From NCBI RefSeq assembly GCF_000020585.3, contig NC_011138.3:3230504-3294503 (forward strand): DNA of 64,000 nt, in the 5' to 3' direction. The stretch is from Alteromonas mediterranea DE. GTDB lineage: Bacteria > Pseudomonadota > Gammaproteobacteria > Enterobacterales > Alteromonadaceae. Both the position numbers and the translations under genes were made by a program. Positions 11,325 to 57,820 of the stretch are shown piece after piece. The first letter of the stretch is position 1, and every line of letters begins with the position of its first letter. The notes under the pieces were generated by a model. It worked only from the letters and a program-made list of their open reading frames with translations. It did no database searches and was not told the DNA's origin.

Positions 11325-11357
11325 CCACCCTCCTTAAAATCAATACTTTACGCGCTT

Positions 11358-12309: not shown

Positions 12310-12951
12310 AAACGGCATGGACTTGTCGTTCATTTTATTTTGTATGGCCATAACATAATGGACGACGCCAGTATCGGTGGGCTCGTTAAATGTTTTACCA
12401 TTCAAAGAGTAAGTCACCACCCACTGGGCTGACAAATATCTTAATAAACCATAGAAGACTTCATTATCCTTGATAACTATAACGTAGTCATGCTCATGGA
12501 CCTTAGAAGCAGGATCGCAAATAATATGCTGGCCTTTCTTCAACCCATCATAATTCTCCACATCCACCTCTATTGCAAAGCAGTCCTTCGGGACGGCAGG
12601 AAAATTTACTGCTAATGACTTCATTGTGCTTTCCATTCCTGATAATGCGTACTTAACTGGTACCCAGGCTTTAGTCAAACCGGATACCACGGTGTTCACA
12701 TCAGTTAGATCGGAATCGATGTCTGAGGGTTTACAACCAACCATGGCGGCAAACTTTCTAATGATATCCGTATTCAGCGCCATTGATTTTTTAGCAGACG
12801 GGTTACGTCCGCTTAGGTAGTAGGAGAACGCTGGCTGAGAAATTCCTAGAATCTTTGCTGCTTTTTGCTGAGTGAGTCCTTTTTCACCTTTTCCTTTTAG
12901 TTCCCAGTAGTAATTCAGTTTCTTACGTATTGCATCGTAATCGCGCTGCAT
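12304..12951 (-). CDS. Phage repressor: HTH plus degenerate LexA/S24-like domain
   Basis: A 215-residue protein. Residues about 27-52 form a helix-turn-helix (LTQQKAAKILGISQPAFSYY). The C-terminal half (about 120-205) has the strand pattern of the S24/LexA fold (CFAIEVDVENYDGLKKGQHI, then YVIVIKDNEVFYGLLR). The position of the catalytic Ser (normally G-D/E-S-M) reads VDVENYDGL, so RecA-stimulated self-cleavage looks lost. It is the best candidate to hold the lysogenic state. Palindromes resembling the phage-wide operator lie just upstream (12979-12995 and 13114-13130). ATG has AGGAG 8 bp before it. Confidence 0.85.
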   Translation of the reverse strand: MQRDYDAIRKKLNYYWELKGKGEKGLTQQKAAKILGISQPAFSYYLSGRNPSAKKSMALNTDIIRKFAAMVGCKPSDIDSDLTDVNTVVSGLTKAWVPVKYALSGMESTMKSLAVNFPAVPKDCFAIEVDVENYDGLKKGQHIICDPASKVHEHDYVIVIKDNEVFYGLLRYLSAQWVVTYSLNGKTFNEPTDTGVVHYVMAIQNKMNDKSMPFK

Positions 12952-43404: not shown

Positions 43405-43589
43405 GCTTTTAACCTCACTCGTAGGTTCTGGAGCATGTCGATGCAACGTTCTGGCGTTGCACTAAGCAACTGTTCGAAGTCTGCCTTCTCCATAATAACC
43501 GCGGCGAATGATACGCCAGCGCCAAGTGTTGTAGATGGTTTAATCGAAGTGTTTTCGTACTGCTTATTGTTCGGGTCGAGTAATATCAT
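43401..43589 (-). CDS. Hypothetical protein, 62 aa
   Basis: A 62-residue frame tightly coupled on both sides (ATGA with the terminase stop and with the DUF3310 start). Sequence is MILLDPNNKQYENT, then a short hydrophobic core and an amphipathic helix. No family recognised. The overlap pattern is the main support. Confidence 0.55.
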   Translation of the reverse strand: MILLDPNNKQYENTSIKPSTTLGAGVSFAAVIMEKADFEQLLSATPERCIDMLQNLRVRLKA

Positions 43590-46333
43590 GCGCGCATGTA
43601 GCTCCGTCGTTTGGTTGAGTTAGTAACGTACTTGTTGAGTCTGTCTTTCCATGATTTCTTTTTCTTAGGTTTTGGGTCGTGGGTCACGATGAACTGATCT
43701 AGCATCTGGAACGCCCACGAAAAAGCATCGACCTGGTCGTCGTGTGTCCCAGCTGGGAATCGCAGCATCTCGTTGCGGATCTCGTTTGTAAATTCTGCGT
43801 TCTTAGGAAGTAGCACCATGCCCTGTTGCATACGACCTTGTAATGGACGGGCACGAGCGGATTTATCGCGGCGTCCTGTTTTCAGTTCTTCATAAGCAAA
43901 GAATGTTTTGCGCTCTCGCATACGTTTGCGGAGCATAGGACCTAGGGCCATTTCAATCTGGCCTTTTTCGAACCCAACAACTTGAGGCAAGAACGCTGTG
44001 TACTCGTCGATGATTTTCTCGATGATTTCTAGCGCGTCCCATTTACCGCGTGCAACGTTAAGCAGATACGCTTTGTCATCGCGGTCGATACCGATAGTTA
44101 CACCTACTGTGTAGTCGTTATGTTCTGCGGTACCAATGGCGAAGTCCCACGCTTGATAAACTTTCAGTCGCTCTCGTGGGGGTTCGACCTCGTAATACCT
44201 GAACCAATCTTTTTGAAAGTAGGCGCCCTCGTCCGGTACAGGGTTCTGCTGGTAAAGGGCCGACCAATCTCTGTCGCCAACGGCGCGTTTGATTCGCTCG
44301 AGTGCATCCAGCGGATATCGGTCGGGGTGGAGTGCGTCGCCTTTGAGACGGTATTTCTCGTTGCTCACGGCGATCGCGGGATAACGGACAATCTCCCATT
44401 TGTCACCGCCTTCGTTCTCTTGGTCGATAAGCCAGCCGGCTAGGTCGTCGTCGTGCCAGCGCGTTAAAATAACAAGTACACCGCCGCCTGGAGCAAGACG
44501 CGTATAAAACGTCGAGGTGTACCAGTCTTTGATTTTCTGGCGGTTGGTCGCAGATTCTGCGTCCTCTCGGTTTTTAATCGGGTCGTCTATTATTCCGATG
44601 TGGGCCCCCCTCCCTGTGATTGCGCCACCGACGCCCGCAGCTACGTATCCGCCGTTAGCATCAGTGTTCCATCGTTCCGCGGATTGAGACTTTTTGTCTA
44701 GTCGGGTCTTGAATATGCGCCCGTAATCTGGGTCGGCTAAGATCCCACGTACTTTGCGCGAGAAGTCCATGGCGAGGTCCGAAGCATACGACGACGCGAT
44801 TACTTCGTGCTTGGGCATTCGTCCTAGGTGCCAGGCCGGAAAGGTTTTCGACGCGAGTTCTGAATTATGTGTCGCTACTAGCTTTTTACCGACTAGATAT
44901 AGACCGTCTGGGGAATCAACCTGGATGCAATGCCCTTTTTCACCGTTCGGTAAATATTCTACTTTTTCTATTGATACTCGTCTTTCAGTAGGGAATCTTG
45001 TGATTCTTTTTCGTGATAGAGCTACGGGAATAACCATTGTAGGGTTAAACCCCACAACGAAATATGGCTTAGTTCCTTGTATACAACTCGTAGAGAGTTT
45101 AGGTTGTATTTCTTCTATGTATGGTTTGAACCCTAGCGTCGTACATAGGTCTAAAACACCGTTGGCTAGCGGTTTGTCCGCTGTGGTGAAACGCATTCGG
45201 CTGTTCTTATCCGTGTGTCCGTCGGTATCTATAAGGCCAGCTAATAGTTCTAACCTGTCTTTTAATGACGCCCGTAGGAACACTTCTGGGATGTGTTTAT
45301 TGTTTAGTACGTTTAGTTCTTTTAACTCTTTGAACATTCGGCCTGCGACATTCGGCCTAGGACCGCTGAACCTAGTAGTGTATACACCTGTCTGCTTGTG
45401 TACCGTCCATGATGATACTTCGTACCCACAACGCGTTATTTTGTCTATTACTGGCTGATCTTTCTTGTCATGGGTAATACAACCAGAATTCTTTGTTCCG
45501 TCCCCCAACCATGCGCCTAGCACGTAGGGGTGCATAGGCAGGTCAGCACTGTCGAATTCTAGTGCGTTTGTTTTAGGTACTTGGAACTGGAACCTGTTTC
45601 CTGCTGTTAGGCTTCGAGGCGTACCGCGATTAGTGTTCTCCAGAAACCATTTGGTTTCTACCGTTTTTTCTTGTTTGTCTGCGCGTGAGTATACTGTCCA
45701 CTCATGGTTAGCATGGCATCTGATTTTCTCGCCGTTAGTGAAAGTAACAACGTAGTCATCTACCGCTTCATCAGAAAGCGCTAGTACGTCTACTGGTTTA
45801 CCCGACGGATGAAAAACCTGGTCCCCAGGTACTAGGTCGCCGTGCGTTACCCATCCTCGGTTAGCAGTTAGCACCGGTGTTGAATGGGCAATGTTTTTAC
45901 CGTGACGTGGCGGTAAGAACAACATAAGTCGTGGGGATTTTTTATCGATGACGTCTTGCGAGAATTTTTCGAGTTTCGAACAAATGTCGATGTGCACCCA
46001 GCCCGGCATGTACTCCGGGTTGAATCGCTGGACAAACGGGAGGAGTCTACGTCGCGACAACTCCCGTTCGGCCTGCTCCTTGCGCGCGGCAGCTTTTCTG
46101 TCGAGAAGTTTAGCTTCTTCTATTTTTCGCTGCTCTTCTTCGTATTTTATTTCATCTGCTTGTTGCTTGAGCATCTCGCGCTGGTCGTCAGACATGCGTT
46201 TTTTTGCCCCTGCGAGCTCAACACTTTGCAGATGCGATACCTTACATTCGTGGCATACCGAGCCCACGAACAAGGTTATAGGTAATTCGTTCTGACACTT
46301 AGGGCAGAGTTTCTTCGTTATCGTCATCGTCAT
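43586..46333 (-). CDS. Terminase large subunit interrupted by an intein
   Basis: 915 residues, of which 147-490 are an intein, leaving a mature terminase of 571. A zinc-finger-like N-terminus (CPKC, CHEC) and a coiled coil precede the ATPase. Walker A PPRHGK|SEL is split exactly at the intein site. Walker B is HIGIIDDP and the coupling motif VLVILTRWHDDDLAGWL. The RNase H-fold nuclease shows AWDFAIG and HDDQVDAFSWAF. It packages the genome into the prohead. The start overlaps terS by 35 bp. A second ATG, two codons on, is equally possible. Confidence 0.92.
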   Translation of the reverse strand: MTMTITKKLCPKCQNELPITLFVGSVCHECKVSHLQSVELAGAKKRMSDDQREMLKQQADEIKYEEEQRKIEEAKLLDRKAAARKEQAERELSRRRLLPFVQRFNPEYMPGWVHIDICSKLEKFSQDVIDKKSPRLMLFLPPRHGKNIAHSTPVLTANRGWVTHGDLVPGDQVFHPSGKPVDVLALSDEAVDDYVVTFTNGEKIRCHANHEWTVYSRADKQEKTVETKWFLENTNRGTPRSLTAGNRFQFQVPKTNALEFDSADLPMHPYVLGAWLGDGTKNSGCITHDKKDQPVIDKITRCGYEVSSWTVHKQTGVYTTRFSGPRPNVAGRMFKELKELNVLNNKHIPEVFLRASLKDRLELLAGLIDTDGHTDKNSRMRFTTADKPLANGVLDLCTTLGFKPYIEEIQPKLSTSCIQGTKPYFVVGFNPTMVIPVALSRKRITRFPTERRVSIEKVEYLPNGEKGHCIQVDSPDGLYLVGKKLVATHNSELASKTFPAWHLGRMPKHEVIASSYASDLAMDFSRKVRGILADPDYGRIFKTRLDKKSQSAERWNTDANGGYVAAGVGGAITGRGAHIGIIDDPIKNREDAESATNRQKIKDWYTSTFYTRLAPGGGVLVILTRWHDDDLAGWLIDQENEGGDKWEIVRYPAIAVSNEKYRLKGDALHPDRYPLDALERIKRAVGDRDWSALYQQNPVPDEGAYFQKDWFRYYEVEPPRERLKVYQAWDFAIGTAEHNDYTVGVTIGIDRDDKAYLLNVARGKWDALEIIEKIIDEYTAFLPQVVGFEKGQIEMALGPMLRKRMRERKTFFAYEELKTGRRDKSARARPLQGRMQQGMVLLPKNAEFTNEIRNEMLRFPAGTHDDQVDAFSWAFQMLDQFIVTHDPKPKKKKSWKDRLNKYVTNSTKRRSYMRA
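44864..45895 (-). other. Class 3-like intein with LAGLIDADG homing endonuclease (in terminase)
   Basis: 344 residues (147-490 of the precursor). It begins NIAHSTPVLT, so the usual Cys/Ser at position 1 is Asn. Block B is CHANHEW (Trp 212), block F GHCIQV (Cys 469) and block G LVATHN with Ser as +1 (Thr 488). Trp-Cys-Thr is the hallmark of class 3 inteins, which use the block F Cys as first nucleophile. LGAWLGDG (272-279) and LLAGLIDTDG (363-372) are the two LAGLIDADG motifs, both with the acidic residue, so the endonuclease looks intact. Confidence 0.85.
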
Positions 46334-49369: not shown

Positions 49370-49579
49370 CGAGGGTCGAAAATTGCCCAAGTGCCATTTA
49401 GTGAACACCGCGACCACTTATTTTTGCGTGACTGGTCGTACCAATGTCATTCATCGCACTTGGCACGAGTAATGCATAACGCCTTTTTTCGCACTTGGCA
49501 CACTCCATGCATGGCACTTTTTCACCTTTTTAATCGAAAAAGACGAACAAATAACCTTATTTGATTCGATTTTTCCGTC

Positions 49580-49609
49580 TTTACACTCTTTATAATCAGT
49601 GGTTATATC
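49580..49609 (+). promoter_or_regulatory. Early promoter with phage palindrome 10
   Basis: TATAATCAGTGGTTATA at 49591-49607. TTTACA at 49580-49585 and TTATAT at 49603-49608 are 17 bp apart, so the -10 overlaps the second half-site. It drives the operon leading into the micro-gene array. Confidence 0.65.
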
Positions 49610-49643
49610 ATCAAACCGCTGCGACCCAGAACCAAGAACCCAG

Positions 49644-49665
49644 ATTCAAGGACCTAGAACCTATG
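49644..49665 (+). repeat. Translation-leader repeat, copy 1
   Basis: A 22-bp sequence ending CCTATG, identical to copy 2 at 49873-49894. It carries AAGGA 10 bp before the ATG it contains. Looser versions (AAGGACCCAGAACCTATG) occur at 50853-50870. Confidence 0.8.
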
Positions 49666-49872: not shown

Positions 49873-49894
49873 ATTCAAGGACCTAGAACCTATG
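49873..49894 (+). repeat. Translation-leader repeat, copy 2
   Basis: Identical to copy 1, including the start codon of the following gene, so the ribosome-binding site and start have been duplicated as one cassette. Confidence 0.8.
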
Positions 49895-50366: not shown

Positions 50367-50699
50367 ATGGCATTAACAGCATGGGCACAAGAAGCAAAAG
50401 CCAAGAGAGAGGCATGGTATAAAATTGAAAGGCTAGAAGCGCAACTAGCAAAGGCTAATGAGCGTATAGAAGAACTTGAGCATTACAATCTTAGATTAGC
50501 TAACGAGTCACACGCCAAAAGTCTTGAGATCGATAGCGCTAATAAATCAGTCATAGAGACTCACGTTAAAGCTTTACAGTCTTTGTTAAATAAAAAATGT
50601 CCTGTTTCTGGTTACGTCATACGAGACAAAGAAAGCCGTGAAATCATTGTAGAAGAACTAGAACAGCTGCTAAAAGAACAATCGACCGATGTACGATAA
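50367..50699 (+). CDS. Coiled-coil protein, 110 aa
   Basis: 110 residues, with residues about 8-75 a coiled coil (RLEAQLAKANERIEELEHYN), then a small domain with CPVSGYVIRDKESREI. AAGGAAA is upstream of the ATG. Its end overlaps micro-gene 1 by 11 bp. Unrecognised. Confidence 0.65.
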   Translation: MALTAWAQEAKAKREAWYKIERLEAQLAKANERIEELEHYNLRLANESHAKSLEIDSANKSVIETHVKALQSLLNKKCPVSGYVIRDKESREIIVEELEQLLKEQSTDVR

Positions 50700-50871
50700 C
50701 AGGCTACGCATACTTGTGCTCTACAGCTCCATAACTAACGGCAGAAACCACATCTATGTTATGGCGCCAGGCATGTGGAAAAACGGCCCTTTGTATAACC
50801 TCATCACCAACCTTGGTGCTAGAGAGACATGTGACGAAAACTATCCATCGGTAAGGACCCAGAACCTATGA
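50689..50871 (+). CDS. Micro-gene array member 1 (60 aa)
   Basis: First member. Strand RLRILVLYSS, then helix LYNLITNLG and NYPSV, the array pattern. The last codons (RTQNL) are also the leader sequence AAGGACCCAGAACC of member 2, which starts inside the stop as ATGA. Confidence 0.65.
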   Translation: MYDNRLRILVLYSSITNGRNHIYVMAPGMWKNGPLYNLITNLGARETCDENYPSVRTQNL

Positions 50872-51005
50872 TACTAGCCAAATGGGAATCTGAACGCATG
50901 ATCCGATTATACGACCTACGACCCGGTACCCGGGCCCACGAATCACTGCGTAAAGTAGGCCTAAAAGCGACGGGATCGTTCGGCGTGCTAGGGGTTAGAT
51001 ATTAA
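50868..51005 (+). CDS. Micro-gene array member 2 (45 aa)
   Basis: Starts MILAKWESERMIRL, helix HESLRKVGL and tail GVLGVRY. Preceded by AAGGA in the leader cassette. TAATG overlap with member 3. Confidence 0.65.
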   Translation: MILAKWESERMIRLYDLRPGTRAHESLRKVGLKATGSFGVLGVRY

Positions 51006-51145
51006 TGATAAAACTCATACATTTTGACCAGCTATATGTGGTAGCAGCGACCGGTGTATCGGAAATACCACTAGAACCGTTGGTATATAAACTAGGTATG
51101 AAGGACCACACCCTAGGAACTATGCCCAAGGTGAAGTACAGATGA
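51005..51145 (+). CDS. Micro-gene array member 3 (46 aa)
   Basis: A clear array protein: strand MIKLIHFDQLYVVAA, P-L turn, helix LEPLVYKLGM and tail MPKVKYR. ATGA overlap with member 4. Confidence 0.72.
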   Translation: MIKLIHFDQLYVVAATGVSEIPLEPLVYKLGMKDHTLGTMPKVKYR

Positions 51146-51306
51146 TAAAGCTAAACACATGGAAGGCCGCAAAAAAAGTGTACGTATTAGGCGCTTCCAT
51201 CCCCTCAAAAGTTAGGCCACTCTTACTTAAGGTAGGCTTTTGCGCTTCCACCACCAAGCACTGGCCGTCAATAGAATACGGAACTGCGTATGCCAGCGGT
51301 CAATAA
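51142..51306 (+). CDS. Micro-gene array member 4 (54 aa)
   Basis: MIKLNTWKAAKKVYVL strand, IPSKVRPLLLKVGF helix, WPSIEYG tail, then an extra GTAYASGQ where other members stop. The extension runs into the decayed member 5. Confidence 0.72.
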   Translation: MIKLNTWKAAKKVYVLGASIPSKVRPLLLKVGFCASTTKHWPSIEYGTAYASGQ

Positions 51307-51463
51307 AATAACGTTAGTGCATCATTACTCACTCAGTAAATTGCACGGTACCATCTAGATATTAGGTGGTAACCCTAAAAGTCATATTTTAGCTGCTATA
51401 GTACAGAAACTTGGAGCGAAACCGTCAAAGTACAGCCCGCCAAAAATAGAGTACGAACGATGA
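51302..51463 (+). pseudogene. Micro-gene array member 5, decayed
   Basis: One frame encodes a complete array-type protein (KITLVHHYSLSKLHGTI, then ILGGNPKSHILAAIVQKLG and PPKIEYER), but an amber TAG at 51356-51358 interrupts it and no ATG stands at the expected start. The first possible start is the GTG at 51317. The 3' half, including the C-terminal tail, is well preserved, so decay is recent or the product is read through. Confidence 0.65.
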
Positions 51464-51615
51464 TAATAATAAAAATTGGATCTCTAAACAAAGTCCTTGT
51501 TTCCGCTAAGCGCCTTAATGATGACATAAACGCAATCTTAATTAAACTCGGCATGCGCCAAGAGACCCCGTACCGAATACCTACGATCCTCTATTCGGTG
51601 CCTGCGTTTCGATAG
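51460..51615 (+). CDS. Micro-gene array member 6 (51 aa)
   Basis: MIIIKIGSLNKVLVSA strand pair, helix INAILIKLGM, tail RIPTILY plus SVPAFR. Starts as ATGA within the end of member 5. Confidence 0.72.
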   Translation: MIIIKIGSLNKVLVSAKRLNDDINAILIKLGMRQETPYRIPTILYSVPAFR

Positions 51616-51625
51616 CGGATTCATT

Positions 51626-51769
51626 ATGTTTAAGATCAAAATACTCCATTTCAAAGATAAAAAAAACGTGTTTGCATTGGCACAAGGACATGTTCCCTTA
51701 AAACAAATTCTAATAAAAATAGGTATGAATATACCTCATGCTGGCGCATTACCAAAGGTTTACTACTAA
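51626..51769 (+). CDS. Micro-gene array member 7 (47 aa)
   Basis: MFKIKILHFKDKKNVFAL strands, VPLKQILIKIGM helix, LPKVYY tail. One of the few members with a gap (10 bp) before it. Ends TAATG into member 8, in a nucleotide block (ACCAAAGGTTTACTACTAATG-like) that also ends member 8. Confidence 0.72.
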   Translation: MFKIKILHFKDKKNVFALAQGHVPLKQILIKIGMNIPHAGALPKVYY

Positions 51770-51912
51770 TGTATGGCTTTAAATTAAGACATTGGAAACG
51801 TAGCAAAAAGATATCCGTAATGTCTCATCAGGACATAAAGCTAAAAGTTGTGTTACTAAAAATAGGGGTGGATGTGCCCACCCCCTTTTCGCACCCAAAG
51901 GTTTACTACTAA
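51769..51912 (+). CDS. Micro-gene array member 8 (47 aa)
   Basis: MYGFKLRHWKRSKKISVM strands, IKLKVVLLKIGV helix, HPKVYY tail. Same length, tail and 3' junction sequence as member 7, so the two are the most recent duplicates visible. Confidence 0.72.
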   Translation: MYGFKLRHWKRSKKISVMSHQDIKLKVVLLKIGVDVPTPFSHPKVYY

Positions 51913-52073
51913 TGATAAAACTCCAAATCCGTAAATTCACTATTGCCATGGCTTTATATGTAAATGCAGGTAAGTCCCATCCAGCACACCATGTTTTGGT
52001 TAAGTTAGGCGCAGAGTTACCCGACGGACATAAAATACCGAGGGTCTACCACCAAAGGATCTACTACCAATGA
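51912..52073 (+). CDS. Micro-gene array member 9 (53 aa)
   Basis: MIKLQIRKFTIAMAL strands, HPAHHVLVKLGA helix, IPRVYHQ tail, then a second tail-like RIYYQ. The 3' end contains the VYY-coding block twice, a small internal duplication. Confidence 0.72.
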   Translation: MIKLQIRKFTIAMALYVNAGKSHPAHHVLVKLGAELPDGHKIPRVYHQRIYYQ

Positions 52074-52366
52074 ACACGTCCCAGATTCGCCCAGTTATTA
52101 ACAAAAACGGCCTAGGATATAGAACCTATGTTCTAGTACGTGACAGCTTTTTTACCGGCAAAAAATACCGTCTTATAACATGGATACGCAGCAAAGAAAC
52201 CAAGCGTATCGATGTCACTGAATGCGTAAGTTTTAGGCACGCAGACTTCCCTGTGGTCACCGAAAAGTTTGATGACATCACAGTATCGGCCACAATCGAA
52301 GAAGCGGTATCAAACATCCGTAAAGTCTATGGCACTAGCGATGACATAGAAGAGTGGCAGCCCTAA
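52070..52366 (+). CDS. Array-embedded gene 10 (98 aa), not of the common type
   Basis: A larger protein with a beta-rich middle (YVLVRDSFFTGKKYRLITWI) and a C-terminal helix ATIEEAVSNIRKVYG. It lacks the K-L-G helix pattern. ATGA and TAATG overlaps tie it to its neighbours. Unrecognised. Confidence 0.6.
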   Translation: MNTSQIRPVINKNGLGYRTYVLVRDSFFTGKKYRLITWIRSKETKRIDVTECVSFRHADFPVVTEKFDDITVSATIEEAVSNIRKVYGTSDDIEEWQP

Positions 52367-52533
52367 TGGGAAAAATAGAAATAGAAAAAATGCCGCCACA
52401 CATCAGTGTACAAGCGAATCTAGAAGTGGCTGTCAGTGCATCACTAAGTGCTGCGCTAAGAATAATAGAGCAATTAGATAGTAGCGCGAAGTACGAGGAA
52501 TCTTGCGACTGGATATTATTTGAGTATGAGTGA
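52366..52533 (+). CDS. Micro-gene array member 11 (55 aa)
   Basis: Diverged member: MGKIEIEKMPPHISVQAN strands, helix SLSAALRIIEQLDSS, tail WILFEYE. Overlaps member 12 by 8 bp. Confidence 0.6.
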   Translation: MGKIEIEKMPPHISVQANLEVAVSASLSAALRIIEQLDSSAKYEESCDWILFEYE

Positions 52534-52699
52534 CAAACAGCCACTGGAAATCTGGGAAGGACTCAATAACAAAATACTAGTTTCCACAACCCTCGACTTC
52601 GACCCAGTACACAAGATACTAGAAAAACTCGGCCTAGAACCTGAGACCCACAACCGATGGCCAGCGATAGCCCCTTATTTTGATAAGCGGAGAAAATGA
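52526..52699 (+). CDS. Micro-gene array member 12 (57 aa)
   Basis: LEIWEGLNNKILVSTTL strands, DPVHKILEKLGL helix with the P-V turn directly before it, RWPAIAPYF tail. ATGA overlap with member 13. Confidence 0.72.
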   Translation: MSDKQPLEIWEGLNNKILVSTTLDFDPVHKILEKLGLEPETHNRWPAIAPYFDKRRK

Positions 52700-52887
52700 G
52701 ATTATTGATAAGGTATTCCAGAACACACGGCATGGCCACACTAACCACAGGTCCGGTGCACATGATGGCAAATAACCCCGAGCTTTTTAGCCTAGTAGGT
52801 AGACTTGCAGGCGGAATATTCGCCGCGTCTATAGTGCCTTTTGGAGCGGTTATATACATAGAGAAAAAATATGATTGGAATGTATAG
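52696..52887 (+). CDS. Micro-gene array member 13 (63 aa)
   Basis: MRLLIRYSRTHGMATLTT strands, NNPELFSLVGRLAGG helix, then a longer hydrophobic segment IFAASIVPFGAVIYI that could enter a membrane. Overlaps member 14 by 17 bp. Confidence 0.6.
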   Translation: MRLLIRYSRTHGMATLTTGPVHMMANNPELFSLVGRLAGGIFAASIVPFGAVIYIEKKYDWNV

Positions 52888-53020
52888 ACATTGGAATGAG
52901 ATAGAGTTTGTTACCCCTGACGAATACTCCTCCGTCAACAAGCTGCTAACTAGAATCTTTGATCTGAATCCTGAAACTGAGGATTCTTGGCCATCGATCA
53001 AAGTGCAGGAAGGACGATGA
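52871..53020 (+). CDS. Micro-gene array member 14 (49 aa)
   Basis: MIGMYRHWNEIEFVT strands, VNKLLTRIFDLNPE helix, SWPSIKV tail. Confidence 0.68.
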   Translation: MIGMYRHWNEIEFVTPDEYSSVNKLLTRIFDLNPETEDSWPSIKVQEGR

Positions 53021-53160
53021 GAATACAAAACTACCCTGATGCCAAGATTATTTACCTGACTTATGTACCTTTTGCCATAGCTCCTGTGTTCAGAAAAATA
53101 CTCAACAAGACATGGCTATATAGGTTCGACACTGAGAGTGTCTTTTCAGCGAGATACTAA
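53017..53160 (+). CDS. Micro-gene array member 15 (47 aa)
   Basis: MRIQNYPDAKIIYLTYV strands, APVFRKILNK helix, VFSARY tail. ATGA and TAATG junctions. Confidence 0.65.
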   Translation: MRIQNYPDAKIIYLTYVPFAIAPVFRKILNKTWLYRFDTESVFSARY

Positions 53161-53288
53161 TGAAAATAATAGTCTTCGAAAAATTCATAGCCGTAAGCGT
53201 ATTTGGCGCTCCTAGTACCATAAAAAAGCTTTCGAAAGACCTAGTACATTTCAACAACCGGTACATGGCCATAGTGATATGGAAATAA
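53160..53288 (+). CDS. Micro-gene array member 16 (42 aa)
   Basis: The shortest member: MKIIVFEKFIAVSVF strands, APSTIKKLSKDL helix, YMAIVIWK tail. Overlaps member 17 by 10 bp. Confidence 0.65.
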   Translation: MKIIVFEKFIAVSVFGAPSTIKKLSKDLVHFNNRYMAIVIWK

Positions 53289-53428
53289 AGCTCCATAGGG
53301 GACTGTCCTTGTACCTGTATATACCGGACGAGGCAGAGAACAAATCTCTGATATATAGCATTTTTTACAAACTCGGCGCTGAAGACCACGTAGGCGCGGT
53401 GCCGAAAATTACTTTGGATAACCCATGA
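53279..53428 (+). CDS. Micro-gene array member 17 (49 aa)
   Basis: MEIKLHRGLSLYLYI strands, KSLIYSIFYKLGAED helix, VPKITL tail. The segment GAVPKI is close to that of member 7. Confidence 0.72.
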   Translation: MEIKLHRGLSLYLYIPDEAENKSLIYSIFYKLGAEDHVGAVPKITLDNP

Positions 53429-53568
53429 GTAACGGCAAGTTTCGTATTATAAAAGGAATGTCAGCCACTTTCGTTTTTCTAGCGGGCGACTCTCACCAAA
53501 GCCTTGCCGCTATTTTTCATAAACTCGGATCGAATAGCACATACATAGTAGTGATACACCATGACTGA
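53425..53568 (+). CDS. Micro-gene array member 18 (47 aa)
   Basis: GKFRIIKGMSATFVFLA strands, QSLAAIFHKLGSN helix, tail YIVVIHHD. Confidence 0.7.
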   Translation: MSNGKFRIIKGMSATFVFLAGDSHQSLAAIFHKLGSNSTYIVVIHHD

Positions 53569-53743
53569 AACTTTCAAACTAGATATCGTATTGGGCACAA
53601 ACTGGATTCGCATAGGTACAGAAGCCCCTGGAGGCGCTACACACGCGATAGAGTATTTAATTAAATCTCTATCTCCTAGCATAATTGAAGGCCCTCATTT
53701 GAGGGATGCGCTACTAATAAAAAATGTCGATGAAGAAGATTAA
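53561..53743 (+). CDS. Micro-gene array member 19 (60 aa)
   Basis: TFKLDIVLGTNWIRIG strands, THAIEYLIKSLSP helix, HLRDALLI tail, then acidic NVDEED. Overlaps member 20 by 14 bp. Confidence 0.65.
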   Translation: MTETFKLDIVLGTNWIRIGTEAPGGATHAIEYLIKSLSPSIIEGPHLRDALLIKNVDEED

Positions 53744-53897
53744 AATAACTAAAGAAAGATACGGAACTTCAATACAAGCACTCAAAAATGTTTCGGATTT
53801 TTGCCTAGAAACAGAGCTTATTATATACAAGCTGTGTGAGAATTCGTCTTGTAGTAGACCTAACGAAGTCACAATCTTAAGGGTTGACCATGGCTAG
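53730..53897 (+). CDS. Micro-gene array member 20 (55 aa)
   Basis: MKKIKITKERYGTSIQAL strands, LETELIIYKLCEN helix (Cys in place of Gly), VTILRV tail. Members 20-22 share the E-x-L-I-x-x-L-C variant of the helix. Confidence 0.68.
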   Translation: MKKIKITKERYGTSIQALKNVSDFCLETELIIYKLCENSSCSRPNEVTILRVDHG

Positions 53898-54081
53898 CCT
53901 TCAAGTCCAGATTATTAAATTCGAAATAGATGTTAGCATCGTCGCGTGGGACGAAAAAGGAGATATAAACCTCAATGTAGAACGTTTGATACACAAACTA
54001 TGCATTAATTTATCCACCACGACGCCCGATAAAGATAACATGTTGAACATTGTTTATGACTCGCAAAATATCAATTCTTAA
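53890..54081 (+). CDS. Micro-gene array member 21 (63 aa)
   Basis: Start at ATG 53890. LQVQIIKFEIDVSIVAW strands, NVERLIHKLCIN helix, DNMLNIVYD tail. Confidence 0.68.
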   Translation: MASLQVQIIKFEIDVSIVAWDEKGDINLNVERLIHKLCINLSTTTPDKDNMLNIVYDSQNINS

Positions 54082-54247
54082 AAGAGGATCAAGCCGAGTA
54101 ATAATAGAAGCCTCGTACGGAGACGACATCGCTTTAGAAATAGAGCGTCTCATATACTCGCTTTGTAAACGCTCAGCTTTAGGTGAACCGACCGAACTAT
54201 ACCCAGTAAGATTACATGCAAATACTTTATCTTTACCCGAAAACTGA
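54056..54247 (+). CDS. Micro-gene array member 22 (63 aa)
   Basis: KISILKRGSSRVIIEAS strands, LEIERLIYSLCKRS helix, ELYPVRL tail. Overlaps both neighbours by 26 and 32 bp, the deepest nesting in the array. Confidence 0.65.
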   Translation: MTRKISILKRGSSRVIIEASYGDDIALEIERLIYSLCKRSALGEPTELYPVRLHANTLSLPEN

Positions 54248-54374
54248 TGGCGTGGCATTGTTACCAGATACTCGGCTCTGCGACCCAGAACGAAGGGCCT
54301 TGGATACAGTAATCAAAAAAATGTTTAAAAACGCAGTAGTGATAGGAACACTATGGTACATAGTGTCAAAATAG
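54216..54374 (+). CDS. Micro-gene array member 23 (52 aa)
   Basis: MQILYLYPKTDGVALL strands, DPERRALDTVIKKMFK helix, AVVIGTLWYIV tail. The CDPERR codons coincide with a GACCCAGAACG leader-type motif. Confidence 0.55.
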   Translation: MQILYLYPKTDGVALLPDTRLCDPERRALDTVIKKMFKNAVVIGTLWYIVSK

Positions 54375-54520
54375 TGAGAACCCGCCCTACCCGAGTTTCC
54401 AAAACACGGTTGGTACGAGTAGGCATAAGAGAAATATATGACTCTCCTATCAACCGTATAATAGAAAAACTAGGTCCTAAAATAGAAGACAGAGGGAGGC
54501 CACGAATATGGGTAAACTAA
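54353..54520 (+). CDS. Micro-gene array member 24 (55 aa)
   Basis: VHSVKIVRTRPTRVS and RLVRVGI strands, SPINRIIEKLGPK helix with the P-I turn, RPRIWVN tail. Very basic. Confidence 0.68.
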   Translation: MVHSVKIVRTRPTRVSKTRLVRVGIREIYDSPINRIIEKLGPKIEDRGRPRIWVN

Positions 54521-54672
54521 CGTTATACAAGTACGATGACGATTTACTAATCTTTGAACTAGAAGTGGAAAGCGGACAAACAATCCCTGCGGAATGGTTA
54601 ATCCATAAGATCGCCCCGCACACTGTTCTTATACCCACGATCCGCAATTCCCCAAGAGTGATACTAAAATGA
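54508..54672 (+). CDS. Micro-gene array member 25 (54 aa)
   Basis: KLTLYKYDDDLLIFELEV strands, IPAEWLIHKIAPH helix, PRVILK tail. ATGA overlap with member 26. Confidence 0.68.
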   Translation: MGKLTLYKYDDDLLIFELEVESGQTIPAEWLIHKIAPHTVLIPTIRNSPRVILK

Positions 54673-54935
54673 TCAAGCTTTTTAGTTATGAAGGTACTGT
54701 TGAGTTTGCCTCTGACGCAGGCGTAAACACAGACGAAACCCAACCCAACTACGCTTTTTTAATAGCGTTTTCTACTGACGAAGATATCTACGGCAACCAC
54801 ACCACGCGCCTAGATATCGAATACAAACGCACAAATGCTCTTATAACTAAGTTACATGGAAAACAACTTGAATGCGGAGAGTGCAGCACCAACCTCGGTG
54901 AAATCTGTAAAGTTAAGAAACGATCACAATGGTAA
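54669..54935 (+). CDS. Micro-gene array member 26 (88 aa, elongated)
   Basis: Begins like the array (MIKLFSYEGTVEFAS) and has a helix NALITKLHGKQ, with an inserted beta region (NYAFLIAFSTDEDIYG) and a CGEC pair near the end. Possibly a fused or extended member. Confidence 0.6.
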   Translation: MIKLFSYEGTVEFASDAGVNTDETQPNYAFLIAFSTDEDIYGNHTTRLDIEYKRTNALITKLHGKQLECGECSTNLGEICKVKKRSQW

Positions 54936-55081
54936 AAGTGACTAAAAACACGTGCAAGGTCCAAGTTAAAACAACCAAGAACCTAGGACCTATAGCTATG
55001 ATTTTGTACCAAATAGCAGGGAAACGTAATTACCTTGTAGCCAACGGTGTTGTTTTTCACAATCGAAACGGCCGGTACTAA
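54929..55081 (+). CDS. Micro-gene array member 27 (50 aa)
   Basis: KVTKNTCKVQVKTTK strand, GPIAMILYQIAGK helix with the P-I turn, tail VVFHNRNGRY. The KNLGP codons are a CCTAGGACC leader-type motif. A 50-bp gap with palindrome 11 follows. Confidence 0.6.
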   Translation: MVKVTKNTCKVQVKTTKNLGPIAMILYQIAGKRNYLVANGVVFHNRNGRY

Positions 55082-55105
55082 TCGTTTTTTCTCGTTGGAA
55101 CCAAT

Positions 55106-55122
55106 TATAATCAAAGGTTATA
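55106..55122. promoter_or_regulatory. Phage palindrome 11: TATAATCAAAGGTTATA
   Basis: Lies inside the micro-gene array, 9 bp before member 28. TTGGAA 17 bp before TTATAT suggests a second array promoter. It splits the array into two operons. Confidence 0.65.
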
Positions 55123-55131
55123 TTCAAGCCC

Positions 55132-55308
55132 ATGAAACCTAAATTAATAATATTACTTTGTGAACGCCAAGTAGCATTTAAGGTAAGGGAAACCTTATCT
55201 AACATACACCCCGTAGAGTTTCTGGTACATAAATTGACGGGTAAAACAATATACGGCCGCCCTCAATACAATAGACACGGTACGATAGACATAAGCCATG
55301 AACGATAA
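55132..55308 (+). CDS. Micro-gene array member 28 (58 aa)
   Basis: First gene after the internal promoter. PKLIILLCERQVAFKV strands, HPVEFLVHKLTGK helix, GTIDIS tail. Confidence 0.7.
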   Translation: MKPKLIILLCERQVAFKVRETLSNIHPVEFLVHKLTGKTIYGRPQYNRHGTIDISHER

Positions 55309-55474
55309 AAACAAACTTGCTTTGTGTATGTTAAGTGGACGCGCATTACTCTTCAAAATCCGCGATGAATACAGTCCTGTTACAGATGTAGAAAATTTAA
55401 TATATAGATTATGCACTGGACATTTACGCAGCCGACCTACAAAACAAAAACACGGGATGCTGGATATTAAATAA
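55298..55474 (+). CDS. Micro-gene array member 29 (58 aa)
   Basis: KLALCMLSGRALLFKI strands, SPVTDVENLIYRLCTG helix, GMLDIK tail. Close in design to member 28. Confidence 0.7.
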   Translation: MNDKNKLALCMLSGRALLFKIRDEYSPVTDVENLIYRLCTGHLRSRPTKQKHGMLDIK

Positions 55475-55475
55475 C

Positions 55476-55685
55476 ATGTTTAAGTTACATATTAAAAATT
55501 ATACTTGGTACATAACCATTTACACTAATTCAGGACCCGACTCTTTATCAAAAGTCCCTGAATCAGAACTCATCGTTTTTAAAATAGCCCCCAAAGGTAT
55601 GGTGTCAGTACCTACGTCAAAAAAAGTAATGAAAATATTTGACTCAAAAGAAAAATACGACATGTACGCCGAAGCAAGGAAATGA
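55476..55685 (+). CDS. Micro-gene array member 30 (69 aa)
   Basis: MFKLHIKNYTWYITIY strands, ESELIVFKIAPKG helix, then a charged extension KEKYDMYAEARK. Confidence 0.65.
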   Translation: MFKLHIKNYTWYITIYTNSGPDSLSKVPESELIVFKIAPKGMVSVPTSKKVMKIFDSKEKYDMYAEARK

Positions 55686-55840
55686 GAGACAAATTACAAA
55701 TACTGCGTTGGATACAAAGCACGACTTACGTACTTAAACGCCCGTATGGTAGCAAAATGCCAGAAAACCTACGGAAAGTGCTCCTGAAACTGGACCGCAC
55801 GTCACTTCTAAGCTACGACGGAGTAACCTATGCCGAATAA
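55682..55840 (+). CDS. Micro-gene array member 31 (52 aa)
   Basis: KLQILRWIQSTTYVLK strands, PENLRKVLLKLDRT helix, YDGVTYAE tail. Confidence 0.68.
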   Translation: MRDKLQILRWIQSTTYVLKRPYGSKMPENLRKVLLKLDRTSLLSYDGVTYAE

Positions 55841-55997
55841 CATTGAGATAGCCTACTCAAAATACGATTGTGTTTTTTTCGTTTGCCCCGCACCTTACGG
55901 TGCAGTTAATAAAGTCCTTGATAAACTTGTCGCATGCTGCGCCAAGGGTAACGTAGAAAACAACCGCTCGTGGCCAGAAATAGGGCTAATACTATAA
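55830..55997 (+). CDS. Micro-gene array member 32 (55 aa)
   Basis: NIEIAYSKYDCVFFVC strands, APYGAVNKVLDKLVAC helix, SWPEIGLIL tail. Four Cys, unusual for the array. Confidence 0.68.
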   Translation: MPNNIEIAYSKYDCVFFVCPAPYGAVNKVLDKLVACCAKGNVENNRSWPEIGLIL

Positions 55998-56179
55998 TGA
56001 ACAACAGCATAGAGATAATCGCTTTTACACGTAGAGTAATAACTATCAGCGTAAATGAATACTGGCACCCAGTGAATCATGTTATTGGAAGATTACTGGA
56101 AAACACTAAAAAAGGCTCCACTGAAACTGCAACAGCTTGGCCCCAAATAAGAACAGACAAGGACAAATCGCATGTGTAA
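55997..56179 (+). CDS. Micro-gene array member 33 (60 aa)
   Basis: NSIEIIAFTRRVITISV strands, HPVNHVIGRLLENT helix, AWPQIRT tail. Similar to members 12, 14 and 32 in the W-P-x-I tail. Confidence 0.7.
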   Translation: MNNSIEIIAFTRRVITISVNEYWHPVNHVIGRLLENTKKGSTETATAWPQIRTDKDKSHV

Positions 56180-56369
56180 AAAAGAGACAGTGTTCAGAAA
56201 CTACAACACCTGGTGGGCCTATATGCTAATGACCCAGAACCTAGGACAAAGTTTCTCCCGTCACATAATGACGGACCAAGGACCCAGAAAACAGGTCTTT
56301 GCAAAACTTCCTGACGGCGAGGTCGTAGGTCATTGGACCCCCGCAGAATCTATTGGGTACTGTTACTAA
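56172..56369 (+). CDS. Array-embedded gene 34 (65 aa), not of the common type
   Basis: Starts MCKKETVFRNYNTWWAYM and ends VVGHWTPAESIGYCY. It has no K-L-G helix. The codons MTQNLGQ and DQGPRKQ lie on two leader-type motifs (GACCCAGAACCTAGGAC, GGACCAAGGACCCAGAA). Overlaps of 8 and 1 bp with neighbours. Confidence 0.5.
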   Translation: MCKKETVFRNYNTWWAYMLMTQNLGQSFSRHIMTDQGPRKQVFAKLPDGEVVGHWTPAESIGYCY

Positions 56370-56527
56370 TGCAGATAATAATAGATGCCACAGGCGGTAC
56401 AATAGACATAGATGTAATAGACCAATCACTTTCTCTAGTAATCAATAAACTTGTCCCGCTAGGTACTACCCATTTTAAGTGGGACCGATGTTCATATTGT
56501 AACCGCATTCTAAAAAAGGCCGAGTAA
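56369..56527 (+). CDS. Micro-gene array member 35 (52 aa)
   Basis: Start at ATG 56369 in the TAATG overlap. MQIIIDATGGTIDIDVI strands, LSLVINKLVPLG helix, and a CSYC pair near the end. Confidence 0.65.
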   Translation: MQIIIDATGGTIDIDVIDQSLSLVINKLVPLGTTHFKWDRCSYCNRILKKAE

Positions 56528-56528
56528 A

Positions 56529-56696
56529 ATGATTACATTAGAGTTACTCGATAGTCCTCAAAACCCTGTTGACATTAACTTTTTTGAAGCAAGCCAAAAA
56601 GAATGCCACATCGTATCGTCACTTTTATTGAAACTGTCTTCAGAACTTAGAAGAGAGCACCCCAATATATATTATGTGGAGTATTACCAAGAATGA
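56529..56696 (+). CDS. Micro-gene array member 36 (55 aa), NPVDI subgroup
   Basis: Opens the NPVDI subgroup (members 36-43): MITLELLDSPQNPVDINFF, then helix IVSSLLLKLSSEL and tail YYVEYYQE. Gly after K-L is replaced by Ser. Confidence 0.75.
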   Translation: MITLELLDSPQNPVDINFFEASQKECHIVSSLLLKLSSELRREHPNIYYVEYYQE

Positions 56697-56869
56697 TAGA
56701 ACTGTTCAGAGTCGGTAACAGGAACGGGAATAACCCCATAGACATAGCTTACGGGAATTCTGGTACTGGAATACGTAACCAAAAAGTAGCCGCTGTATTC
56801 AAGAAACTGTCTTCTAAATTATCTGTATATACAACCTTTGCGGTCTATCGACATGATAAAAATAATTAA
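56693..56869 (+). CDS. Micro-gene array member 37 (58 aa), NPVDI subgroup
   Basis: MIELFRVGNRNGNNPIDIAY, helix VAAVFKKLSSKLS, tail FAVYRHD. Confidence 0.75.
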   Translation: MIELFRVGNRNGNNPIDIAYGNSGTGIRNQKVAAVFKKLSSKLSVYTTFAVYRHDKNN

Positions 56870-57011
56870 ATTCAACAATACAAAAAACCCAGTGGACATA
56901 AACTTTTATGGTGGCACAGCGGCCGACTCAACTGTTTTAATGGAAATACTAAGACAACTAAGTTATGAGATGTACGTTTCACACGAATTTGCGGAATATT
57001 ACACAGAATGA
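56853..57011 (+). CDS. Micro-gene array member 38 (52 aa), NPVDI subgroup
   Basis: MIKIIKFNNTKNPVDINFY, helix LMEILRQLSYEMY, tail FAEYYTE. ATGA into member 39. Confidence 0.75.
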   Translation: MIKIIKFNNTKNPVDINFYGGTAADSTVLMEILRQLSYEMYVSHEFAEYYTE

Positions 57012-57160
57012 TTGAATTAATCCGACACTTTCATGAATCAAACCCAGTAGATATCAGCCACATGGATGGCGGATACTCAATATCAAATATACTTGCTAAG
57101 TTAACCCCAGGCATGTTTTGCCATAAGCATTACTCTGAGTACTTTTGCCATGAACGATGA
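57008..57160 (+). CDS. Micro-gene array member 39 (50 aa), NPVDI subgroup
   Basis: MIELIRHFHESNPVDISHM, helix ISNILAKLTPGMF, tail SEYFCHER. Confidence 0.75.
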   Translation: MIELIRHFHESNPVDISHMDGGYSISNILAKLTPGMFCHKHYSEYFCHER

Positions 57161-57326
57161 AGTAATTGAAATCGTACGGTATAAAAGCATAACTAAAAAC
57201 CCCGTAGATATATTTTTTGACGGTAAAAGAAACGAAGAGTTATCCGCTATATTCAAAAAGCTGTCTACCGACATGTATGCTTTTACGAACAACTCGATGG
57301 AGTACATAATATGGCCTCTCGAATGA
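57150..57326 (+). CDS. Micro-gene array member 40 (58 aa), NPVDI subgroup
   Basis: VIEIVRYKSITKNPVDIFF, helix LSAIFKKLSTDMYAF, tail MEYIIWPLE. Close to members 37 and 41. Confidence 0.75.
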   Translation: MNDEVIEIVRYKSITKNPVDIFFDGKRNEELSAIFKKLSTDMYAFTNNSMEYIIWPLE

Positions 57327-57478
57327 TCGAAATAATAAAAAACGAAGAGACGATTCGCCACAACCCTGTAGATATTTTTTTCGTTGGAGAGCAACACGAA
57401 AAGTTAAGAACTACCCTCAAAAAACTATCTCAGAATCTAGGTATATTCGGGAGCCACTTAATCGAGTACATAAGATGA
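57323..57478 (+). CDS. Micro-gene array member 41 (51 aa), NPVDI subgroup
   Basis: MIEIIKNEETIRHNPVDIFF, helix LRTTLKKLSQNLGIF, tail LIEYIR. Confidence 0.75.
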   Translation: MIEIIKNEETIRHNPVDIFFVGEQHEKLRTTLKKLSQNLGIFGSHLIEYIR

Positions 57479-57660
57479 TTCGGGTAGTATATTTCCCCGA
57501 GAGAACAAATTCGAATGTGCTAGACATAGATCATTTCGATGAAGCCTCTATCACAGGACCTATAATCCAGAAACTAGGGCCTTCGAACTTAGAAATGTCT
57601 GGTACAGGTAATTATACGGAGTACTGGGATCATGAAAATCCTACTTCTCAGGATGGCTAA
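57475..57660 (+). CDS. Micro-gene array member 42 (61 aa)
   Basis: MIRVVYFPERTNSNVLDIDHF (diverged N-P-V-D-I), helix ITGPIIQKLGPSN, tail YTEYWDHEN. It combines the NPVDI-like start with the K-L-G helix and so links the two subgroups. Confidence 0.72.
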   Translation: MIRVVYFPERTNSNVLDIDHFDEASITGPIIQKLGPSNLEMSGTGNYTEYWDHENPTSQDG

Positions 57661-57781
57661 CCGAAATCCCATAGACATCATTACAGATCCTTCTGTTCAT
57701 GACGTCATAATATCCATAGCTTCAATCAATAAAACAAAATCTATAAGTAACATGAAAACCTATATTGAGTGTTACCTATAA
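57632..57781 (+). CDS. Micro-gene array member 43 (49 aa), last
   Basis: MKILLLRMANRNPIDIIT, a weak helix VIISIASINKTKS that has lost K-L, and tail TYIECYL. Overlaps member 42 by 29 bp. Possibly a degenerate end copy. Confidence 0.6.
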   Translation: MKILLLRMANRNPIDIITDPSVHDVIISIASINKTKSISNMKTYIECYL

Positions 57782-57803: not shown

Positions 57804-57820
57804 TATAATCTCTGATTATA
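57804..57820. promoter_or_regulatory. Phage palindrome 12: TATAATCTCTGATTATA
   Basis: Lies right after the array. TTAACA at 57793 and TTATAT at 57816 are spaced by 17 bp, so it is a promoter for the next operon. Confidence 0.68.

What the first reader, a model, noticed from the sequence alone, without database searches (positions are those of the whole stretch)
50689..57781. Array of 43 overlapping micro-genes that nearly all share one hidden protein pattern
In 7.1 kb there are 43 consecutive genes of 42-98 codons, same strand, joined almost everywhere by ATGA, TAATG or longer overlaps. Sequences differ almost completely, yet about 41 fit one plan: N-terminal hydrophobic strand(s) (M-I-x-I/L), usually a P-V/I turn, an amphipathic helix h-x-x-I/V-h-x-K-L-G/S/C/T, and a tail P-x-I/V-x-Y or EYY. 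One ancestral gene seems to have been duplicated dozens of times and diversified strongly while keeping a core fold. I know of no described phage family like this. Plausible roles are a library of inhibitors against varied host defences, host-takeover factors, or a heteromeric assembly. The function is inference; the pattern is in the sequence.
Basis: partly seen in the sequence, partly recalled or inferred. Interest (0 to 1): 0.95.

Follow-up and report, generated by a model that had tools for sequence, protein, structure and literature searches.

The report
Phage array of 42 diversified micro-genes
A bacterial virus inserted in its host's chromosome carries 42 tiny, mostly overlapping genes, most of which encode one shared hidden protein pattern; they are likely copies of one ancestral gene that diverged into a set of small proteins predicted to bind different host targets early in infection.

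Summary
At 50689-57781 of a 63,250-bp prophage in the 6S RNA gene lie 42 intact same-strand ORFs of 42-98 codons plus one copy broken by an in-frame TAG; 36 of 41 junctions overlap. Simulations, the other strand and the fetched parts of seven related phages show no such chain. The hidden plan is real but less universal than stated: in a leave-one-out profile test 28 of 42 members beat at least 99% of their own shuffles, 32 beat 95%, 10 fail. Neighbours resemble each other most, which fits local duplication. Ten orthologues are 72-98% identical to one member each, paralogues 22% (median); orthologue changes are rarer at plan positions (9 of 127 against 65 of 407). So members seem kept for separate jobs. 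Family libraries, PDB and fold searches gave nothing useful, and seven paper searches no similar array. Best reading: an early-expressed set of small binders with different targets (anti-defence or host takeover). The function is inference; structure prediction was weak (pLDDT 66).

The parts
50689..50871 (+). m01, first array member, 60 aa
   Evidence: ORF; leave-one-out 3/300 shuffles
50868..51005 (+). m02, 45 aa; fails the profile test
   Evidence: 122/300
51005..51145 (+). m03, 46 aa; block A
   Evidence: 17.0 bits, 0/300
51142..51306 (+). m04, 54 aa; block A
   Evidence: 22.9 bits, 0/300
51290..51463 (+). interrupted member: TAG at 51356-51358; the 3' piece carries the helix and tail of the plan and overlaps m05 by 4 bp
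   Evidence: pieces translated apart
51460..51615 (+). m05, 51 aa; block A
   Evidence: 11.4 bits, 0/300
51626..51769 (+). m06, 47 aa; block A; orthologue P0014 43/47 identical
   Evidence: 29.2 bits, 0/300
51769..51912 (+). m07, 47 aa; block A
   Evidence: 20.8 bits, 0/300
51912..52073 (+). m08, 53 aa; block A
   Evidence: 13.8 bits, 1/300
52070..52366 (+). m09, 98 aa, longest; fails the profile test
   Evidence: 254/300
52366..52533 (+). m10, 55 aa
   Evidence: 9/300
52526..52699 (+). m11, 57 aa
   Evidence: 1/300
52696..52887 (+). m12, 63 aa; fails the profile test
   Evidence: 171/300
52880..53020 (+). m13, 46 aa (or 49 aa from 52871); orthologue P0019 39/46
   Evidence: 0/300
53017..53160 (+). 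m14, 47 aa; fails the profile test (narrowly)
   Evidence: 18/300
53160..53288 (+). m15, 42 aa; fails the profile test
   Evidence: 47/300
53279..53428 (+). m16, 49 aa
   Evidence: 0/300
53425..53568 (+). m17, 47 aa
   Evidence: 0/300
53561..53743 (+). m18, 60 aa
   Evidence: 9/300
53730..53897 (+). m19, 55 aa; KLC type
   Evidence: 0/300
53890..54081 (+). m20, 63 aa; KLC type; orthologue P0018 59/63
   Evidence: 0/300
54056..54247 (+). m21, 63 aa
   Evidence: 0/300
54216..54374 (+). m22, 52 aa; fails the profile test
   Evidence: 94/300
54353..54520 (+). m23, 55 aa
   Evidence: 0/300
54508..54672 (+). m24, 54 aa
   Evidence: 0/300
54669..54935 (+). m25, 88 aa
   Evidence: 13/300
54929..55081 (+). 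m26, 50 aa
   Evidence: 2/300
55106..55122 (.). 17-bp near-palindrome in the only gap longer than 10 bases (55082-55131) that holds no member remnant: possible second promoter/operator of the array
55132..55308 (+). m27, 58 aa
   Evidence: 8/300
55298..55474 (+). m28, 58 aa
   Evidence: 0/300
55476..55685 (+). m29, 69 aa; fails the profile test
   Evidence: 85/300
55682..55840 (+). m30, 52 aa; fails the profile test
   Evidence: 25/300
55830..55997 (+). m31, 55 aa; orthologues P0001 51/55 and P0003 42/55
   Evidence: 0/300
55997..56179 (+). m32, 60 aa
   Evidence: 0/300
56172..56369 (+). m33, 65 aa; fails the profile test; carries two + strand copies of the RACCYAG heptad element
   Evidence: 118/300
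56369..56527 (+). m34, 52 aa
   Evidence: 0/300
56529..56696 (+). m35, 55 aa; NPVDI block; orthologue P0011 49/55
   Evidence: 0/300
56693..56869 (+). m36, 58 aa; NPVDI block
   Evidence: 0/300
56853..57011 (+). m37, 52 aa; NPVDI block
   Evidence: 0/300
57008..57160 (+). m38, 50 aa; NPVDI block; orthologue P0004 39/50
   Evidence: 0/300
57150..57326 (+). m39, 58 aa; NPVDI block
   Evidence: 0/300
57323..57478 (+). m40, 51 aa; NPVDI block; orthologue P0012 43/51
   Evidence: 0/300
57475..57660 (+). m41, 61 aa; orthologues P0010 60/61 and P0013 44/61
   Evidence: 3/300
57653..57781 (+). m42, last member, 42 aa (or 49 aa from 57632); fails the profile test
   Evidence: 42/300
49591..49607 (.). 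17-bp near-palindrome TATAATCnnnGGTTATA before the first gene of the early operon that leads into the array
57804..57820 (.). the same palindrome directly behind the array, before the next gene (57857)

Best explanation
This is a run of 42 intact, mostly overlapping small phage genes plus one interrupted copy, likely grown from one ancestral gene by repeated local duplication, that would be switched on early in infection and whose products are predicted to share a small beta-beta-alpha(-beta) scaffold and each likely bind, and so block or redirect, a different host or defence protein. SHOWN: the gene chain, the overlaps, the shared sequence plan in most members, block-wise similarity along the array, one-to-one orthologues 72-98% identical in other sequences, fewer orthologue changes at plan positions, a wide spread of net charge (-7 to +9), and a broken member. 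INFERRED: early expression (from position behind the first early genes and the phage-specific 17-bp palindromes); coupled translation by stop-start overlap; common fold (sequence plan and a modest model). UNTESTED: that they bind other proteins, what those are, and whether the effect is anti-defence or host takeover.
For: Chain and overlaps. Plan: (among the 37 members of A1, K at the helix position in 27 and L next to it in 27). Duplication. Individual maintenance: ten differing homologues, each with one clear best member. The longest-contig figures group nine of them into sequences of 44,417 bases (m06, m13, m31, m41 types) and 37,820 bases (m20, m35, m38, m40, m41 types); the tenth is on 1,246 bases. 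Plan positions changed 9 of 127, others 65 of 407, Fisher P = 0.012. Different surfaces: net charge -7 to +9. Dispensable members: the interrupted copy. Early position: the array lies between the divergence from the leftward late genes and a MoxR-type ATPase and a VWA protein, each with relatives in hundreds of phage records (485 and 727). The 17-bp palindrome stands before the early operon, in the array's gap and behind it, and 16 of its 19 genomic places with at most 1 mismatch lie in the prophage. The related record G446 has no such chain in the same interval.
Against: No function was measured and no scanned member resembles a known inhibitor; PADLOC lists defence, not anti-defence, proteins. 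Ten of 42 members fail the profile test. Both structure models are weak (mean pLDDT 59.8 and 65.7) and the PDB fold search found nothing with E below 5. Codon usage is a weak coding signal (17 of 42). DNA of the orthologues could not be reached, so selection was judged from protein changes only; the plan columns were picked by me from A1, m31 and m41 count twice, and only 32 of the 74 changes are conservative. The single broken copy may be peculiar to this strain. A near-invariant lysine in the helix could mean one shared activity rather than many different ones.
Confidence: 0.45

Rival explanations
1. The members are subunits of one heteromeric assembly (a shell, filament or carrier), kept apart as 40-odd small proteins instead of one repeat protein.
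For: One plan with strands before and after the helix, similar gene lengths and coupled reading frames would suit balanced supply.
Against: One member is broken; net charge runs from -7 to +9; related phages with a related capsid or portal gene show no such array in what was fetched or searched.
Confidence: 0.12
2. The members are small nucleic-acid-binding regulators or antitoxin-like proteins of one biochemical activity (the conserved helix lysine doing the same job in all), expanded to recognise many sites or toxins.
For: Conserved K-L pair in the helix (27 of 37 each); several basic members.
Against: None of the 37 scanned members matches a DNA-binding or antitoxin model; acidic members exist; the weak PDB hits, one of them VapBC1, have E of 5 or more.
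Confidence: 0.18
3. The array is a passive by-product: runaway tandem duplication of a small gene, now drifting, with most members useless.
For: Extreme divergence, one broken copy, 10 members that fail the profile test.
Against: 42 of 43 frames are open; orthologues 72-98% identical against paralogue median 22%; orthologue changes are rarer at plan positions.
Confidence: 0.08
4. The reading frames are an accident of a DNA or RNA element (for example the RACCYAG heptads) and are not genes.
For: The heptad element lies in several members that fail the plan test (m02, m22, m33); codon-usage signal is weak.
Against: Chains this long never arose in 200 simulations; plan, start-site words and conserved homologous proteins; heptads also occur outside the array.
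Confidence: 0.03

Closest known systems
Host-takeover module of Bacillus phage SPO1 (a cluster of 26 genes, from the start of the abstract of PMC6873191 as shown in the listing; gene sizes and lack of kinship recalled)
   Same: Dense cluster of small early phage genes on one strand, used against host processes
   Different: SPO1 genes are not one sequence family (recalled); here most members share one plan and overlap head to tail; the array DNA matched no record of the phage collection
Anti-CRISPR / anti-restriction gene clusters of phages (recalled)
   Same: Several small, fast-evolving proteins encoded side by side
   Different: Usually a few unrelated genes, not tens of paralogues (recalled); no library model matched
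Multigene families of large eukaryotic viruses (poxvirus host-range families, African swine fever virus MGF; recalled)
   Same: Tandem duplication and divergence of one gene into many host-interaction proteins
   Different: Much larger genes and other kinds of virus (recalled); no sequence relation tested
Kochitakasuvirus KPP25 and related podoviruses (portal 35-40%; portal 49% with IMG/VR record G446)
   Same: Portal and, in G446, MoxR then VWA genes behind the same interval
   Different: No micro-gene chain in the parts fetched: 39,859 of 64,113 bases of KPP25, 50,000 of 55,655 of AP1, all of phiA008, MW202615, G446 and G447, 40,000 of 40,163 of G448

Membership tests
Described protein families (Pfam, PHROGs, NCBIfam, PADLOC, PDB) | Members match a curated profile or solved chain | tested here: not met
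   37 of 42 members scanned: 0 families in PHROGs, NCBIfam and PADLOC at E 0.1; one stray Pfam hit (DUF7454, 1 member, E 0.05); 0 PDB chains at E 1 with the A1 profile. Three of the five left out (m09, m25, m33) were scanned in Pfam without a hit; m02 and m12 were not scanned
Host-takeover module (SPO1 type) | Dense cluster of small same-strand genes | tested here: met
Host-takeover module (SPO1 type) | Transcribed immediately after infection | not testable with these tools
   No expression data; early position is inferred from gene order and shared palindromes
Host-takeover module (SPO1 type) | Products act on host processes | not testable with these tools
   No assay; inferred only
Anti-defence proteins | Inhibits a named defence system | not testable with these tools
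   No assay; no match in the libraries searched
One paralogous family (duplication array) | Members recognised by a profile of the others | tested here: met
   28 of 42 at 3/300 shuffles or better, 32 of 42 at 15/300; 10 not
One paralogous family (duplication array) | Neighbours more alike than distant members | tested here: met
   Mantel r -0.309, 0 of 2000; block maximum 55.0, 0 of 2000; nearest relative is the immediate neighbour for 10 of 42 (2.0 expected, permutation maximum 11) and within 3 places for 20 of 42 (5.9 expected, maximum 16)
One paralogous family (duplication array) | Common three-dimensional fold | tested here: inconclusive
   A1 model of m03: beta 2-6, beta 11-15, helix 24-29, pLDDT 65.7, pTM 0.39; A4 model of m06 poorer, one short helix, pLDDT 59.8
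Heteromeric assembly | All subunits intact and co-conserved | tested here: inconclusive
   One member broken; gene content of the related sequences could be seen only through the proteins found

The most novel reading that the evidence does not exclude
A phage keeps an evolvable armoury in one operon: a single 50-residue scaffold duplicated more than 40 times, each copy re-surfaced to grip a different bacterial protein or defence system, with new specificities made by local duplication and old ones dropped. It would be a prokaryotic-virus counterpart of the multigene host-interaction families of large eukaryotic viruses, built from overlapping genes that are translated in one coupled run.
Probability: 0.4. 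Interest if true: 0.92.

Novelty: categorically new. Interest (0 to 1): 0.82.

Why it matters
If true, it is a natural library of dozens of binders on one tiny scaffold, and a direct way to study how phages invent new anti-host proteins: by duplication in place and not by picking up unrelated genes. It also shows that gene families can hide below the reach of ordinary searches, since median identity is 22% at about 50 residues. The members are ready-made candidates for screens against bacterial defence systems. Even if the function proves different, more than 40 mostly overlapping small genes in 7 kb, most of them one family, is a gene organisation that I could not find described for a phage (searches; open-access PMC papers by term matching only).

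Tried and rejected
Searches that led nowhere: the array DNA against phage records (near and distant) and plasmids (near); member alignments and neighbouring early genes in viral contigs and genome contigs; P0001 in phage records by tblastn. The A1 profile in 59 genomes of the genus and 394 of the order (partly the same genomes) found only the window's own array. In 30 viral records carrying a related capsid gene it found nothing (30 of the 80 loci kept, out of 132 relatives; the tool warns that this run held no positive control and that many records are fragments). The capsid protein in the 59 genus genomes found only the window's own prophage. Rfam found only the 6S RNA in the window, nothing in the array.

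Considered and rejected: non-coding artefact (chains, plan and homologous proteins speak against it); a chance motif (shuffles and non-member frames); recent amplification (median paralogue identity 22%); an array common to all relatives of this phage (no comparable chain in the fetched parts of KPP25, AP1, phiA008 and MW202615, nor in G446-G448).

Results against my reading: 10 of 42 members fail the profile test; codon usage is weak; both models are poor; the four Foldseek hits have E of 5 or more. Rows dropped: alignment A1 leaves out 5 of 42 members (m02, m09, m12, m25, m33), so figures from A1 concern 37. The orthologue comparison uses the 10 of 20 returned proteins that differ from the window's own; the other 10 match window members over the whole aligned length. 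The helix motif and the plan columns were chosen after seeing the alignment.

Full report
WHERE IT IS. The window is part of a 4.48-Mb bacterial chromosome. A 56-bp direct repeat at window 11268-11323 and at 74518-74573 (in the adjoining stretch) marks a 63,250-bp prophage. The left repeat lies in the 6S RNA gene (11143-11325) and an integrase-like gene lies beside the right one (L024:9331-10596). The portal protein is 35-40% identical to those of phiA008, KPP25, MW202615 and AP1, and 49% identical to that of viral record G446. Late genes read leftward from about 47 kb, early and replication genes rightward. The array lies in the rightward arm, behind a few other small genes and ahead of a MoxR-type ATPase and a VWA/metallopeptidase (DUF2201) protein, whose relatives occur in 485 and 727 phage records.

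THE GENES. Forty-two intact ORFs of 42-98 codons fill 6,878 of 7,093 bases. Thirty-six of 41 junctions overlap: 12 by 4 bp, 7 by 1 bp, 6 by 8 bp, 11 by other lengths. The largest gap holds a 43rd member split by an in-frame TAG; its second piece carries the helix and tail of the plan and runs into m05 with the usual 4-bp overlap. The longest strict chain is 22 ORFs, against 4 on the other strand and at most 4 in 200 simulated sequences. With gaps up to 60 bases it is 38, against at most 12 on the other strand of the window or in eight other loci (the adjoining stretch, a sister genome and four related phages). Start sites carry Shine-Dalgarno-like words in 19 of 42 cases against 21% of background positions. 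Codon usage is only a weak signal: the member frame is best of six in 17 of 42.

THE PLAN. In the 37-member alignment A1 (5 of 42 left out) the plan is: strand [IL]-[KE]-[IL]; strand [VI]-x-[IVF]; often P; helix [LVI]-x-x-[ILV]-[ILF]-x-K-L-[GSCA]; then often T and a tail P-x-[IV]-x-Y. K is at its place in 27 of 37, L in 27 of 37. Leave-one-out profiles, built from the other 41 members, recognise 28 of 42 better than at least 297 of 300 shuffles of the same protein, and 32 of 42 better than at least 285; ten fail. The helix motif, written after seeing the alignment, occurs in 26 of 42 members, in 2.6 on average (maximum 9) after shuffling, and in 2 of 50 other frames of the region. In 58 other genomes of the genus and 393 others of the order (partly the same genomes) the A1 profile rings nowhere at E 1e-3 and 1e-4 respectively, while it finds 26 and 17 places in the window's own array. 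Many of those members built the profile, so the own hits are no independent test; the absence elsewhere is a specificity control.

HOW IT GREW. Similarity falls with distance along the array (Mantel r -0.309, 0 of 2000 permutations). The blocks m03-m08 and m35-m40 stand out (mean pair scores 47.7 and 55.0 against 23.6 overall). The nearest relative lies within three places for 20 of 42 members against 5.9 expected (permutation maximum 16); it is the immediate neighbour for 10 of 42 against 2.0 expected (permutation maximum 11). That is what repeated local duplication leaves behind.

IT IS KEPT. Three searches of 5.8 billion proteins (E limits 0.01, 0.1 and 10) returned 20 distinct proteins. 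Ten match window members over the whole aligned length; ten differ, each with one clear best member (m06, m13, m20, m31 twice, m35, m38, m40, m41 twice) at 72-98% identity, while the next-best member gives 29-43%. By their longest-contig figure, four come from a sequence of 44,417 bases and five from one of 37,820 bases (same contig inferred); the tenth lies on 1,246 bases. So the paralogues had diverged before these phages parted, and the members seen are still recognisable one by one. Changes hit 9 of 127 plan positions and 65 of 407 others (P = 0.012); m31 and m41 enter twice, the plan columns were my choice from A1, and 32 of the 74 changes are conservative. The DNA of those sequences was out of reach, so synonymous rates could not be used.

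WHERE IT IS NOT. Record G446 (56 kb) has a related portal (49%) and MoxR and VWA genes in the same order (27% and 30%), and the stretch between terminase end and MoxR shows no chain of this kind (longest 4 strict, 8 loose, in L112). G447, G448 and the fetched parts of KPP25, AP1, phiA008 and MW202615 show none either. Thirty viral records with a related capsid gene gave no profile match; many are fragments and that run held no positive control.

CONTROL. A 17-bp palindrome TATAATCnnnGATTATA recurs in the prophage. Of 19 places in the genome with at most one mismatch to TATAATCNNNGRTTATA, 16 lie in the prophage. By their coordinates most stand just before a gene start; two (27895, 60571) lie inside genes. 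Copies stand before the early operon (49591), in the array's 50-base gap (55106) and just behind the array (57804). I infer that it is the operator or promoter core through which the prophage keeps these genes silent; the likely regulator is the HTH protein at 12304-12951. This was not tested.

WHAT IT DOES. Nothing in Pfam, PHROGs, NCBIfam, PADLOC or the PDB helps. The better of two models (m03 with 37 rows) is beta-beta-alpha at mean pLDDT 65.7 and finds no fold match. The reading I commit to, at 0.45, is a set of small binders with one scaffold and different targets, made early and used against host or defence proteins. It fits the early place, the small size, the spread of charge (-7 to +9), the one-to-one conservation and the tolerance of a broken member. 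A set of nucleic-acid-binding or antitoxin-like proteins (0.18) and a heteromeric assembly (0.12) remain possible.

LITERATURE. Ten searches of the open-access library were made; in the listings of the seven aimed at such arrays or small-gene families I saw no description of one. I judged from listings (titles and starts of abstracts). Of the review on phage small proteins PMC11323111 I saw only the passages for six terms: 'paralog', 'array', 'duplicat', 'tandem' and 'operon' do not occur in its text. PMC6873191 (SPO1) was seen only in the search listing. Subscription papers are mostly not covered.

Noticed in passing
whole prophage, e.g. 49623-49664, 49873-49893, 54973-54993, 56231-56294: A heptad element RACCYAG, often in tandem (GACCYAGAACC): 84 matches with up to 2 mismatches in the window against 18.7 expected. 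It follows transcription: by my count of that list 31 - and 14 + at 13-47 kb, 28 + and 2 - at 47-58.6 kb. Four of five exact ACCYAGAACCYA in the 4.48-Mb genome lie here. Some copies run into start codons (ATG at 49663, 49892, 50868). Function unknown.
   Followed up: partly
11474, 22660, 26755, 27895, 35617, 39949, 43092, 46793, 49591, 55106, 57804, 58814, 60571 and, right of the window, 65099, 69264, 71818: Phage-specific 17-bp palindrome TATAATCnnnGATTATA, mostly just before gene starts on both strands, with 27895 and 60571 inside genes; 7-bp arms with a 3-base centre could also form a hairpin.
   Followed up: partly
43586-46333 (-): The large terminase gene holds an insert with LAGLIDADG matches (residues 348-409) ahead of the matched ATPase domain (493-712), probably an intein.
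   Followed up: no
11143-11325 and 74518-74573: The prophage sits in the 6S RNA gene (ssrS); the 56-bp att core is the 3' part of that gene.
   Followed up: yes
49443-49512: Two imperfect 35-bp repeats in the leader before the early operon.
   Followed up: no
L025 (G017:C65): A sister genome carries another phage-like region with a VWA protein (28% identical) behind a MoxR-like ATPase but no micro-gene chain longer than 5.
   Followed up: partly
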